Positions 12,330 through 53,845 of a DNA stretch of 64,000 nt are shown piece by piece. Made by a program: the position numbers and the translations under genes. The DNA comes from Catenovulum sediminis (GTDB lineage Bacteria > Pseudomonadota > Gammaproteobacteria > Enterobacterales > Alteromonadaceae). The DNA lies in contig NZ_CP041660.1 of NCBI RefSeq assembly GCF_007289895.1, forward strand, positions 2,480,001 through 2,544,000, in the 5' to 3' direction. How positions within the stretch are numbered: the stretch's first letter is position 1; each line of letters begins with the position of its first letter. Below the pieces are notes generated by a model. The model saw only the letters and a program-made list of their open reading frames with translations. It was not told the origin of the DNA and made no database searches.

Positions 12330-12765
12330 AAAATGAAACTCGAAACTCAAAGCTAAAATGTAGGTCGCGGCTTTAGCCCGACAAAGGCATAACGCACAAT
12401 TGTCGAATTAAGATTGTCGCCCTAAAGGACGACCTACACAGCTCGTAGCTCGAAACTCAAAGCTCAAAGCTAAAATGTAGGTCGCGGCTTTAGCCCGACA
12501 ATGTAGGTCGGACTTTAGTCCGTCAAAGCAAGCAACACAATTGCCGAACTAAACAATTGTCGCCCTAAAGGAACGACCTACACAGCTCGTAGCTCGTAGC
12601 TCGAAACTCGAAACTAAAATGTAGGTCGCGGCTTTAGCCCGACAAAGGCATAACGCACAATTGTCGAATTAAGATTGTCGCCCTAAAGGACGACCTACAC
12701 AGCTCGAAGCTCGCGACTCGAAGCTCGCGACTCGAAGCTCGTAGCTAAAATGTAGCTAAAAATCC
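12330..12765. repeat. REP-like palindrome cluster with 7-bp tandem repeats
   Basis: The cluster fills most of the gap between tyrS and rluA. Units of the form GTAGGTCGCGGCTTTAGCCC, able to fold as stem-loops, occur at ~12360, 12478 and 12621, with a variant (GTAGGTCGGACTTTAGTCCG) at ~12503. Inverted partners (GTCGCCCTAAAGGACGACCT) occur at ~12415, 12558 and 12675. Degenerate heptamers of the type AGCTCGA/AGCTCGT/GAAACTC fill the spaces. A 93-bp stretch is repeated exactly (12353-12445 and 12614-12706). The cluster ends within about 30 bp of the rluA start, leaving little room for an rluA promoter. Confidence 0.9.
12570..12584 (+). other. Unoccupied match to the IS110 insertion site
   Basis: GGAACGACCTACACA in this repeat cluster is the same core sequence that flanks the IS110 element (left flank to 15092, right flank from 16301), joined without an insertion. 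It is therefore a candidate empty target for that element. Most other repeat copies in the window differ at the GGAA position. Confidence 0.6.
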
Positions 12766-14904: not shown

Positions 14905-15092
14905 AATGTAGGTCGCGGCTTTAGCCCGACAAATCTTGCAATATGCAAATTGTCGCCCTAAAGGGACGACCTACACAGCTCGTAGCTCGCGGCTTAAAGC
15001 TCGAAGCTCAAAACTGTCGCCCTAAAGGACGACCTACACGGCTCGCAGCTTAAAGCTCGAAGCTCAAAACTGTCGCCCTAAAGGAACGACCT
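14905..15092. repeat. REP-like cluster, left part, interrupted by the IS110 element
   Basis: A GTAGGTCGCGGCTTTAGCCC unit near 14918 is followed by inverted partners near 14950, 15017 and 15070, with degenerate heptamers (AGCTCGA, TTAAAGC) between. The last partner is cut after GGAACGACCT at 15092, where the insertion sequence begins. The remainder of the unit resumes at 16303. Confidence 0.9.
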
Positions 15093-15099
15093 TGTATCT

Positions 15100-15275
15100 C
15101 TCAGTGATTGATGTTTAGCTAGCAGCAATCACATCGGGACGCCAGTGAGTATGTGAACGACCTAATCAGAAAATGATGGGTTGTAGATAATGCCCTGGCT
15201 TCCTAACCTCCATAAAACTGAATGGTATCCTAGCGCCCTATTTCAGGTGACGCTGCATGTACAAGGGGAGTAAAT
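15100..15275 (+). ncRNA. Predicted bridge RNA of the IS110-family element
   Basis: The left end contains two bipartite guide loops. Target loop: GAACGACCT (15155-15163) equals the left flank ending at 15092, and TGTAG (15182-15186) is the reverse complement of the right flank CTACA. A GCCAG/CTGGC stem (15141-15145 with 15195-15199) encloses the loop. Donor loop: ATGGTATC (15222-15229) equals the right end of the element, and TACAAG (15260-15265) is the reverse complement of CTTGTA at the left end. A possible CTCC/GGAG stem (15208-15211 with 15267-15270) encloses it. The RNA ends are inferred from the predicted junction promoter and the last guide. The size (~170 nt) fits IS621. Confidence 0.75.
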
Positions 15276-15279
15276 AGAG

Positions 15280-16266
15280 ATGAAGGCCTATGCAGGTATT
15301 GATGTCGGTAAAGATAAATTAGATGTTAGTTGGTTACGTGACGCCACCACAAACAAGAAGAAAACGAAAGTATTAAAAAACACACCAAAAGGGCATAAAG
15401 AACTGGTGACGTGGTTGCTCAAAAATACAAAATATCAACCGCATGAAATCGTTATTACAGTTGAACCAACGGGTGTTTATAGTGAACCCCTCATGTACTA
15501 TTTACATGAACAAGGATTCATTTTATTACAAGCAAATCCAAGTAAAGCGTCGCAATATGCAAAAGCGTTGAATTTGGTTCATAAGACAGATAAATCGGAT
15601 GCCACGATGCTAGCCCGTTATGGACATGACCAGCAACATTCTTTGTGTAGATGGCAGCCAGAGCCGGTGGAATCAAGAGCGTTAAAGGCGATGCTACGCA
15701 GGCTAGAAGCACTAGAGCAGGATTTGCAGCGGGAAGAAAATCGATTTGAAGCCGCTAATTTTTCAGGCGCATCAGCACGAGTGATTCAGTCGCTGGAAGA
15801 CATGATAGCGGTGTTGAAAGATGAAATAGACAAGTTAACTCAAGAAATTGACGACCATATAGATGGGCATCCATCACTAAAAAAGAACCGTAAATTACTC
15901 CAAAGCATAAGCGGCGTTGGGGTTGTTGTTTCAAGAGTGATGGTTAGCTTGTTAGCCTGTAAGAATTTTAAAAATGCAAAGCAGTTTTCAGCGTATTTGG
16001 GTTTAATTCCGAAGCTTAAAGAATCGGGGAAACAGGCTGGAAAAACCACATTAAGCAAACAAGGCCCGAGTTATGTTAGGGTCAAATTATATATGGCAGC
16101 AGTCGTGGCAGGGCAACATAATCCTGATATAAAAGCTCAAAAAACACGGTTATTGCAGCAAGGCAAGAATAAAATGCAGGCATTAGGAGCGGCGATGAGA
16201 AAGCTGGCTCAAATATGCTTTGGAGTTGTAAAAACTCAAACAGAATATCAGCCTCAAGTTAATTAA
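15280..16266 (+). CDS. IS110-family transposase (bridge-RNA-type recombinase)
   Basis: This 328-residue serine/DEDD recombinase is close to IS621 in length. The N-terminal RuvC-like domain has Asp8 (AGIDVGKDKLD), Glu62 (VEPTGVY), Asp104 and Asp107 (KTDKSDATMLARYG). A coiled-coil linker (~135-195) follows. The C-terminal Transposase_20 domain has ISGVGVVVSRVMVSL, AYLGLIPKLKESG and the likely catalytic Ser259 in TLSKQGPSYVR. All catalytic residues appear intact. GGGGAG 9 nt before the ATG is the ribosome-binding site and overlaps the 3' part of the predicted bridge RNA. Confidence 0.95.
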   Translation: MKAYAGIDVGKDKLDVSWLRDATTNKKKTKVLKNTPKGHKELVTWLLKNTKYQPHEIVITVEPTGVYSEPLMYYLHEQGFILLQANPSKASQYAKALNLVHKTDKSDATMLARYGHDQQHSLCRWQPEPVESRALKAMLRRLEALEQDLQREENRFEAANFSGASARVIQSLEDMIAVLKDEIDKLTQEIDDHIDGHPSLKKNRKLLQSISGVGVVVSRVMVSLLACKNFKNAKQFSAYLGLIPKLKESGKQAGKTTLSKQGPSYVRVKLYMAAVVAGQHNPDIKAQKTRLLQQGKNKMQALGAAMRKLAQICFGVVKTQTEYQPQVN

Positions 16267-16274
16267 ATAACGAC

Positions 16275-16302
16275 TTGAAGCTGATTGTGAGAGATGGTAT
16301 CT
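16275..16302 (+). promoter_or_regulatory. Right-end half of a predicted junction promoter
   Basis: TTGAAG (16275-16280) lies exactly 17 bp before TAT at 16298-16300. When the element circularises, these bases are followed by the CT core and the first T of the left end, giving TATCTT. The pair TTGAAG-17-TATCTT is a reasonable sigma-70 promoter that exists only in the circle. It would start transcription at about 15100, just before the predicted bridge RNA. Confidence 0.55.
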
Positions 16303-16417
16303 ACACTTCATGTGAAACTTGAAACTTGAAACTTGTAGCTAAAATGTAGGTCGCGGCTTTAGCCCGACAAATCTTGCAATATGCAAAATGTCGCCCTAAA
16401 GGGACGACCTACACAGC
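16303..16417. repeat. REP-like cluster, right part, abutting ilvC
   Basis: After the insertion sequence come three GAAACTT heptamers, a GTAGGTCGCGGCTTTAGCCC unit near 16345, and its inverted partner GTCGCCCTAAAGGGACGACC near 16390. The final GCTTAA runs directly into the ilvC stop codon. The hairpins may act as the 3' end structure for ilvC mRNA. Confidence 0.88.
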
Positions 16418-26295: not shown

Positions 26296-26845
26296 TAAAA
26301 TGTAGGTCGCTACTCGAAGCTTAAAGCTAAAATGTAGGTCGTGGCTTTAGCCCGACAAATCTTGCAGTATGCACGATGTTGAAATAAAAATTGCCGCCCT
26401 AAAGGGCCGACCAGTGCAGCTCGAAGCTCGAAGCTCGAAACTTAAAGCTAAAATGTAGGTCGTGGCTTTAGCCCGACAAATCTTGCAGTATGCGCGATGT
26501 CGAAATAAAAATTGTCGCCCTAAAGGGCCGACCTACACAGCTCAAAGCTCGTCGCTCGAAGCTTAAAGCTAAAATGTAGGTCGTGGCTTTAGCCCGACAA
26601 ATCTTGCAGTATGCACGATGTTGAATGAAAAATTTTCGCCCTAAAGGGCCGACCTACACAGCTCGAAGCTTAAAGCTAAAATGTAGGTCGTGGCTTTAGC
26701 CCGACAAATCTTGCAGTATGCACGATGTCGAAATAAAAATTGTCGCCCTAAAGGGCCGACCTACACAGCTCGCAATAAAAATTGTCGCCCTAAAGGGCCG
26801 ACCTACACAGCTCGCTGCTCGCTGCTCGTCGCTCGATGCTCAAAG
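26296..26845. repeat. Large REP-like and heptamer repeat cluster
   Basis: About five copies of a module: GTAGGTCGTGGCTTTAGCCC, a spacer with AATCTTGCAGTATGCACGAT, an inverted partner GTCGCCCTAAAGGGCCGACC, then degenerate heptamers (AGCTCGA, AGCTTAA). Starts of the forward units lie near 26334, 26456, 26577 and 26684; a truncated one is at ~26301, and a lone inverted partner near 26780. Short open frames inside are repeat artefacts. The cluster lies between rpmE and rrtA and ends near the rrtA stop. Confidence 0.92.
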
Positions 26846-53236: not shown

Positions 53237-53845
53237 AGCGAGGAGCTACGAGCTACGAGCTACGAGTTTCGAGCGTTGGTAATGTAGGTCGCGGCTTCAG
53301 CCCGACAAATCTTGAATCATGCACAAATGTCGCCCTACATTTGTCGCCCTAAAGGACGACCCACAATTGTCGCCCTAAAGGGCCGACCTACACAGCTCGT
53401 AGCTATAATGTAGGTCGTGGCTTCAGCCCGACAAATCTTGCAGCATGCAAAATGTCGCCCTAAAGGGACGACCCACAATTGTCGCCCTAAAGGGTCGACC
53501 TACACTGATTGTGAAACTTGAAACTTGAAACTTGAAACTTGAAACTTGAAACTTGAAACTTGAAACTTGAAACTTGTAGCTATAATGTAGGTCGTGGCTT
53601 CAGCCCGACAAATCTTGCAGCATGCAAAATGTCGCCCTAAAGGGACGACCCACAATTGTCGCCCTAAAGGGTCGACCTACACTGATTGTGAAACTTGAAA
53701 CTTGAAACTTGAAACTTGAAACTTGAAACTTGAAACTTGAAACTTGAAACTTGTAGCTATAATGTAGGTCGCGGCTTCAGCCCGACAAATCTTGCATAAT
53801 GCACGTTGTCGCCCTAAAGGACGACCCACAATTGTCGCCCGACCT
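53237..53845. repeat. REP-like cluster with GAAACTT tandem arrays
   Basis: A dense cluster between the convergent TIGR03899 gene and cysG. Forward units GTAGGTCGYGGCTTCAGCCC lie near 53284, 53410, 53587 and 53764, with multiple inverted partners GTCGCCCTAAAGGRWCGACC. Heptamers are GAGCTAC at the left end and GAAACTT further right. Here the palindrome loop reads CTTCAG in place of the CTTTAG of the other clusters. Confidence 0.92.
53399..53752. repeat. Exact 2 x 177-bp tandem duplication
   Basis: 53399-53575 and 53576-53752 read as identical by eye. Each copy holds one forward palindrome unit, two inverted partners, and an array of nine perfect GAAACTT heptamers (53513-53575 and 53690-53752). 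A third, diverged copy begins at 53753. Identity over 177 bp implies a recent duplication or active homogenisation. Confidence 0.92.

What the first reader, a model, noticed from the sequence alone, without database searches (positions are those of the whole stretch)
15093..15279. Left end of the IS110 element encodes a bridge RNA whose guides match its own insertion site and ends
Four short segments lie in the order left-target, right-target, left-donor, right-donor. GAACGACCT (15155-15163) equals the left flank (15084-15092). TGTAG (15182-15186) is complementary to the right flank CTACA (16301-16305). ATGGTATC (15222-15229) equals the right end of the element (16294-16301). TACAAG (15260-15265) is complementary to CTTGTA across the left boundary (15091-15096). 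Each pair sits in a plausible stem-enclosed loop, with a small hairpin between its two guides. All four matching by chance in 187 bp, in the right order, is unlikely. This is the layout known for IS621 bridge RNA, here with its own target specificity readable from the sequence.
Basis: partly seen in the sequence, partly recalled or inferred. Interest (0 to 1): 0.88.

Follow-up and report, generated by a model that had tools for sequence, protein, structure and literature searches.

The report
IS110 element's guide RNA matches insertion site
A small jumping DNA element in a bacterium appears to encode an RNA that base-pairs with its own ends and with a repeated palindromic sequence of the host, telling the element where to insert; this is a clear new example of a mechanism described in 2024, not a new one.

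Summary
Window 15093-16302 is an IS110-group insertion sequence (transposase 15280-16266, CT core). Its 187-nt left end holds, in order, guides for left target, right target, left donor and right donor; 0 of 5000 shuffles gave ordered matches as long. The decisive evidence comes from relatives. Over 41 distinct left flanks of homologues, the left-target guide matches its own flank at 8.0 of 9 bases, against 5.8 for other elements' flanks (0 of 20,000 permutations). The right-target guide also tracks its flank (26 distinct flanks, 0 of 20,000). Donor guides largely change with the element ends (not permutation-tested). Stems of the two-loop fold covary. A covariance model built without IS621 finds the real E. 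coli IS621 bridge RNA. The circle junction would create a promoter-like site. The target is an abundant REP-like palindrome of this host (185 sites), copies of which flank a RAYT-like gene. Four target words tested are each common in their own host and rare in the other genomes searched. This is a new member of a known kind, closely parallel to IS621. Expression and recombination were not testable.

The parts
15093..16302 (+). IS110-group insertion sequence, counted with one CT core (equivalently 15091-16300)
   Evidence: Two copies in the genome differing at one base with different outer flanks; CT at both ends
15091..15092 (+). left copy of the CT core dinucleotide
   Evidence: CT in all 47 left ends recognised in homologues, by a search pattern that favoured CT
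16301..16302 (+). right copy of the CT core dinucleotide
15084..15092 (+). left target GAACGACCT (host repeat, with core)
   Evidence: Equals 15155-15163; part of a host repeat with 185 sites at <=3 mismatches
16301..16305 (+). right target CTACA (with core)
   Evidence: Reverse complement of 15182-15186
15104..15132 (+). 5' stem-loop of the predicted RNA
   Evidence: Minimum-free-energy fold of the window sequence; covariation of this stem not counted
15136..15272 (+). [quoted passage not shown]
   Evidence: Covariance model R1, 129.8 bits (the sequence is in the model's training set); stems covary in relatives
15138..15202 (+). target-binding loop: outer stem 15138-15145/15195-15202, inner hairpin 15165-15168/15174-15177
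   Evidence: Helices 1 and 3: 94.1% and 98.5% of cells paired, 8 of 8 and 3 of 4 pairs with changes on both sides
15155..15163 (+). left target guide (LTG)
   Evidence: Own-flank match 9 of 9; permutation test over 41 distinct flanks, 0 of 20,000
15182..15186 (+). right target guide (RTG)
   Evidence: Complementary to CTACA; permutation test over 26 distinct right flanks, 0 of 20,000
15208..15270 (+). donor-binding loop: closing stem 15208-15211/15267-15270, inner hairpin 15232-15237/15246-15254
   Evidence: Helices 4-6 (72.7%, 100%, 53.1% of cells paired; helix 5 is strong, the closing stem and helix 6 weaker)
15222..15229 (+). left donor guide (LDG)
   Evidence: Equals right end 16294-16301; mostly changes with the right end in homologues
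15257..15265 (+). right donor guide (RDG), AU..ACAAG
   Evidence: Complementary to CT+TGTAT with two bases skipped; mostly changes with the left end in homologues
15280..16266 (+). IS110 transposase/recombinase, 328 aa; D8, E62, D104, D107 and S249 align with IS621 D11, E60, D102, D105, S241
   Evidence: Pfam PF01548 and PF02371; NCBIfam NF033542 'IS110 family RNA-guided transposase'; IS621 8wt6 E 4.5e-51; residues
16275..16302 (+). right end: -35-like TTGAAG (16275-16280) and left part of the -10-like TATCTT that forms across the circle junction (17-bp spacer)
   Evidence: Sequence match only, no shuffle control
15071..15092 (+). left part of the interrupted REP-like host repeat

Best explanation
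This is an IS621-like IS110-group mobile element. Its left end is transcribed into a bridge RNA, most likely from a promoter formed when the two ends join in the excised circle. The RNA binds the element's DEDD/serine recombinase. One internal loop pairs with the target (GAACGAC-CT-ACA in a host REP-like repeat); the second loop pairs with the circle junction (ATGGTAT-CT-TGTAT). The recombinase exchanges strands at the shared CT core, inserting the element without a target duplication. Shown here: sequence matches, covariation of guides with targets, fold conservation, target abundance. Inferred from IS621: transcription, protein binding, strand exchange.
For: Exact four-part match in order, 0 of 5000 shuffles as long. 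Guide-flank tracking across homologues: LTG 41 distinct flanks, own 8.0/9 vs 5.76/9; RTG 26 distinct flanks, own 5.69/7 vs 4.82/7; each 0 of 20,000 permutations. Unusual right flanks have matching guides: CTGATTG/UAAUCAG (L102, 6 of 7), CTTTATA/UAUAAAG (L079), CTGACCC/GGGUCAG (L107), CTCTCCC/GGGAGAG (L111). Donor guides mostly follow the ends: left end TGTA with ACAAG, TATA with AUAAG, CGTA with ACGAG; right end GACAGTATC with UACAGUAUC. Fold: 19 of 27 pairs with two-sided changes, 0 of 500 shuffles as high. The model finds IS621's RNA at E 1.3e-5 without having been trained on it. Promoter-like junction in 29 of 36 homologue rows. Second genomic copy at an equivalent site.
Against: No RNA or recombination data. 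The window RTG matches only 5 bases. The lone minimum-free-energy fold pairs the LTG with the RTG region instead of leaving the target loop open, and its z-score is modest at -2.9. The DBL closing stem and the upper part of its hairpin are weakly supported (72.7% and 53.1% of cells paired). Some homologues match poorly: LTG 6 of 9 for L083, L092 and L008_2821; RTG 4 of 7 for L060, L086 and L113, and in 6 of 36 rows the best RTG match lies away from the GUAG site. Donor-guide exceptions: L083 and L111 (RDG), L070 and L110 (LDG).
Confidence: 0.95

Rival explanations
1. A protein-only site-specific recombinase whose left end merely carries subterminal copies of target and end sequences (binding sites or captured flank), with no guide RNA.
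For: In 2006 target specificity of REP-targeting elements was discussed as a property of the transposase (PMC1525189, passages); the LTG is an exact DNA copy of the flank.
Against: RTG and RDG match the opposite strand, as pairing to the other DNA strand requires. The copies sit at fixed places in a covarying RNA fold. Near-identical left ends whose LTG differs at one position sit at flanks that differ in the same way at that position (L063 vs L078, L113 vs L080; the flanks also differ elsewhere).
Confidence: 0.02
2. Chance matches, with the four segments picked out by eye.
For: The RTG match is only 5 bases; short matches are easy to find.
Against: 0 of 5000 shuffles; guides at the corresponding places match the differing flanks of homologues.
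Confidence: 0.005
3. A once-functional but now inactive element: the guides are real but the copy no longer moves.
For: Only two copies; the second carries a premature stop in its transposase.
Against: The window copy has an open 328-aa frame with aligned catalytic residues; the two copies differ at one base of 1210, so the spread looks recent.
Confidence: 0.2

Closest known systems
IS621 of E. coli and its bridge RNA (Durrant 2024, PMC11208160; Hiraizumi 2024, PMC11208158)
   Same: Guide RNA in the left end; LTG-RTG-LDG-RDG order; similar guide lengths with a discontiguous RDG; CT core; junction promoter; DEDD plus serine recombinase; insertion into REP-type repeats. The covariance model from this clade finds IS621's RNA.
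   Different: Recombinase only distantly similar (phmmer E 4.5e-51); no DNA-level match in the E. coli collection; LTG set for a different host's repeat (IS621 ATCGGGCCT). The RTG (GUAG) and much of the donor guides are shared.
IS110-group seekRNA element ISEc21 (Siddiquee 2024, PMC11187229)
   Same: Long non-coding region upstream of tnp with bottom-strand match before top-strand match (passages)
   Different: A different element; its sequence and target were not compared here.
REP-targeting elements ISPpu9, ISPpu10, ISPa11 (PMC1525189)
   Same: IS110-family elements inserted specifically in abundant intergenic palindromes (abstract and passages)
   Different: ISPa11 is IS1111-type with its RNA downstream of tnp; here the RNA is upstream.
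Close homologues in Saccharobesus litoralis and Marinomonas rhodophyticola (77-79% protein identity)
   Same: Same ends, core and fold
   Different: LTG changed in line with their own flanks.

Membership tests
IS110 family, IS110 group (IS621-type bridge RNA element) | Transposase with DEDD RuvC-like domain (PF01548) and serine domain (PF02371) | tested here: met
   Both Pfam domains above cut-off; NF033542 212 bits vs cut-off 140; D8/E62/D104/D107/S249 align with IS621 catalytic residues
IS110 family, IS110 group (IS621-type bridge RNA element) | Long non-coding end upstream of tnp, short downstream end | tested here: met
   187 nt upstream, 34 nt from stop codon to core
IS110 family, IS110 group (IS621-type bridge RNA element) | Structured RNA with 5' stem-loop and two internal loops, each with an inner hairpin | tested here: met
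   Two loops. The 5' stem-loop rests on the single-sequence fold only.
IS110 family, IS110 group (IS621-type bridge RNA element) | LTG, RTG, LDG, RDG in that order, matching target and donor and including the core | tested here: met
IS110 family, IS110 group (IS621-type bridge RNA element) | Promoter reconstituted across the circle junction | tested here: inconclusive
   TTGAAG-17-TATCTT by sequence; comparable pair in 29 of 36 homologue rows. No shuffle control; activity not tested.
IS110 family, IS110 group (IS621-type bridge RNA element) | RNA expressed, bound by the recombinase and required for recombination | not testable with these tools
   Needs RNA-seq and assays
IS1111 group | Long end and RNA downstream of tnp | tested here: not met
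   RNA is upstream; downstream end is 34 nt. Subterminal inverted repeats were not searched for.
Target repeat as a REP element | Short palindromic intergenic repeat in many copies, RAYT gene flanked by copies | tested here: met
   185 sites vs 0 for the reversed pattern; inverted pairs; one Y1_Tnp match in the genome, its ORF with repeat copies 61 bp upstream and further ones downstream. RAYT class not tested beyond Pfam; the RAYT-REP arrangement is recalled.

The most novel reading that the evidence does not exclude
IS621-like elements keep re-aiming at whatever REP-type palindrome is abundant in their current host. The right half of the target (CTAC) and the donor loop stay nearly constant, while the short left-target guide drifts or switches to match the host's repeat, so each lineage carries a readable record of its hosts and target switching accompanies host change.
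Probability: 0.5. Interest if true: 0.5.

Novelty: new member of a known kind. Interest (0 to 1): 0.33.

Why it matters
It is an independent, well-resolved bridge-RNA element whose target rule can be read from sequence, with about 40 natural guide/target pairs collected from relatives, including near-identical elements re-aimed by one or a few bases. It gives natural test cases for mismatch tolerance and for how guided mobile elements follow host repeats. The basic mechanism is already published.

Tried and rejected
Rfam (release 15) gave no match in the window at gathering threshold; I built a covariance model instead. A window-wide control gave two pieces scoring above the left end (within about 12444-12692). 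I first suspected a second bridge RNA; it is only intact host repeats. No DNA-level relative was found in the E. coli collection. The viral collection gave one relative. A test of whether left flanks are hairpins was positive over 45 flanks (median percentile 0.17, 17 of 45 at or below 0.1, Wilcoxon p 1.2e-5) but unremarkable for the two copies of the window element themselves (0.31 and 0.48), so it is only group-level support. An automatic RDG finder sometimes picked TCCAAG beside the LDG, so the donor-guide covariation is given descriptively and was not permutation-tested. The first comparison of the two genomic copies used the wrong strand and was redone.

Rows dropped before the LTG count: near-identical copies were merged and rows without upstream sequence were skipped. 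Of the 58 remaining homologue rows with at least 34% identity, 11 had no recognised left end and were left out: seven cut at contig ends (L065, L039-L044), one with an unrelated sequence in place of its left end (L058), and three whose left ends my motif did not recognise (L099, L110, L115). Of those three, L099 and L115 match their flanks by eye but are not counted. For the RTG, 36 of 47 had a readable right flank, 26 of them distinct.

Full report
What is there. Window 15093-16302 is an insertion sequence with a 328-aa transposase at 15280-16266. It matches both IS110 Pfam domains, NCBIfam's 'IS110 family RNA-guided transposase' and the solved IS621 (8wt6, E 4.5e-51) and ISCro4 (9t56) recombinases. 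D8, E62, D104, D107 and S249 align with IS621 D11, E60, D102, D105 and S241 (IS621 numbering from passages of PMC11208158). Non-coding DNA is 187 nt upstream and 34 nt downstream of the gene, the IS110-group layout described in PMC11208160 (section 12 read). The core is CT.

The claimed matches. All four are exact at the stated places. They follow the IS621 scheme: the left guides copy the top strand and the right guides are its reverse complement, each including the core or part of it (PMC11208160 section 7 read). In 5000 shuffles of the left end none gave an ordered set as long (28 bases observed, maximum 25). Of 2044 other window pieces two scored 30 and 33, because they contain intact copies of the host repeat that is the target.

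Second copy. The genome (4.11 + 0.76 Mb) holds one more copy, on the other replicon. The two differ at one base, which puts a premature stop in the second copy's transposase. Both sit at ...CTAAAGGAACGACCT | CTACAC... in otherwise different surroundings.

Guides track targets. Of 58 homologue rows with at least 34% protein identity and upstream sequence, 47 had a recognisable left end. The best match of the 9-nt left flank inside nucleotides 31-115 of the element averaged 8.0 for 41 distinct flanks against 5.76 for other elements' flanks. None of 20,000 permutations came near (maximum 6.41). The match lies at +54 to +75 in 45 of 47 rows; the exceptions are L092 and L008_2821, and in L114 the finder chose a site 8 nt before the usual one. 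For the right target, 26 distinct flanks out of 36 rows gave 5.69 of 7 against 4.82, again 0 of 20,000. Elements whose right flank is not CTAC carry correspondingly altered guides (L102, L079, L107, L111). Weak cases exist: L083, L092 and L008_2821 match 6 of 9 on the left; L060, L086 and L113 match 4 of 7 on the right, and in 6 of 36 rows the best right match lies away from the GUAG site.

Natural re-aiming. Near-identical left ends differ at the LTG in step with their flanks. In G002 (same genus as the window), L063 and L078 differ A/G at one LTG position and their flanks differ A/G at the same position. In Saccharobesus litoralis, L085 and L061 differ at 6 alignment columns, 5 of them in or next to the LTG. 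Counted by hand, the LTG of L061 fits its own flank better (8 against 6 of 9), while the LTG of L085 fits both flanks equally (7). The Saccharobesus identification rests on the 208,085-bp replicon length and match position agreeing with NZ_CP026605.1.

Donor guides. Left ends TGTATC, TATATC and CGTATC go mostly with ACAAG (or GCAAG), AUAAG and ACGAG; right ends GATGGTATC, GACGGTATC and GACAGTATC go mostly with LDGs of the form .AUGGUAUC.ACGGUA.. and UACAGUAUC. Exceptions are L083 and L111 for the RDG and L070 and L110 for the LDG. This was read from the tables, not permutation-tested.

Fold. In 17 homologues a hand-drawn two-loop structure has 86.6% of cells paired and 19 of 27 pairs changed on both sides, against 71.4% and 11.1 in shuffles (0 of 500 as high on any of five measures); slid versions pair 34-52%. 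The covariance model from those 17 sequences, which exclude IS621, found matches in 23 of 35 sources (one of them, the window, is in the training set), including both E. coli IS621 copies at E 1.3e-5. The 12 sources without a match are all more distant IS110 relatives. The model-fitted alignment also covaries, though such an alignment leans towards the structure. In the 17, the LTG outside the core is 51% conserved and the variable RTG part 50%, against 98% for GUAGAU and 99% for the LDG; the loop of the donor hairpin is still less conserved. The window RNA alone folds only moderately better than shuffles (z -2.9) and its best fold pairs LTG with RTG.

Promoter. Joining right end, core and left end gives TTGAAG-17-TATCTT in the window element; 29 of 36 homologue rows have a pair with at least 4 of 6 consensus bases in each box. 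I ran no shuffle control for this. Durrant et al. report such a junction promoter for IS621 (section 5 read).

The target is a REP-like host repeat. CGCCCTAAAGGNACGACCTACA occurs 185 times at up to 3 mismatches in the genome, against 0 for the reversed pattern; copies form inverted pairs in the window. The one Y1_Tnp match in the genome lies in an ORF that starts 61 bp from one copy and is followed by further copies, the arrangement recalled for RAYT genes and their REPs. Target words made from guide and flank were counted in eight genomes: GAACGACCTACA 6 in the window's genome and at most 2 elsewhere; TGCTCGYCTACA 48 in Saccharobesus and at most 1 elsewhere; TGCCRACCTACR 9 in G002 and at most 2 elsewhere; CGTCAGGCTACR 17 in G212 and at most 2 elsewhere. 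Reversed-pattern controls gave 0 to 3 per genome, and 0, 1, 1 and 0 in the four own genomes. Each word is therefore enriched in its own host. The sample is small: four of the six homologue-bearing genomes among the eight had their word tested.

What is known. Bridge RNAs, guide-target covariation over 5,511 pairs and REP targeting by IS621 are published (PMC11208160; sections 5, 7 and 12 read, other passages). Natural reprogramming is reported for ISEc11/ISXne4 (PMC11187229, passages). REP targeting by IS110 elements was noted in 2006 (PMC1525189, abstract and passages). I therefore file this as a new member of a known kind. Whether guide tracking of host REPs across genera has been described I could not settle: the full-text searches listed no paper whose title or start of abstract says so, but only four of the listed papers were opened.

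Limits. Nothing here shows transcription, protein binding or strand exchange.

Noticed in passing
L116 and L117 (E. coli NZ_CP126348.1, NZ_CP024240.1), about 1787-1858: Both IS621 copies carry a tandem copy of the first ~72 nt of the left end, ending at the core CT inside the left target guide (ATCGGGCCT). It looks like recombination at the element's own guide DNA, which mimics its target, or slippage on GGCCTTG. A 60-nt junction query covers at least 80% in 1380 of 5426 E. coli genomes, which may be too high because separate pieces are joined.
   Followed up: partly
L118:1953-2483 (own genome, contig 1 near 647 kb): A 176-aa Y1_Tnp (RAYT-like) ORF flanked by copies of the same palindromic repeat that the IS targets.
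   Followed up: partly
window 12359-12699, 14907-14975, 16345-16413, 26333-26807, 53283-53787: Clusters of the REP-like inverted repeat TGTAGGTCG...CGACCTACA, arms in alternating orientation.
   Followed up: partly
own genome, one search list: Both insertions are at the GGAACGACC variant of the repeat, which fits the guide exactly; 4 of the 25 zero-mismatch sites listed have this variant, 21 have GGGACGACC. Suggestive only.
   Followed up: no
L065-L067 (G077) and L111 (G1054): Two divergent homologues have right flank CTCTCCCC with a GGGAGAG right guide; the G077 left flanks are CACCCTAGCCCT and CACCCAACCCT.
   Followed up: no
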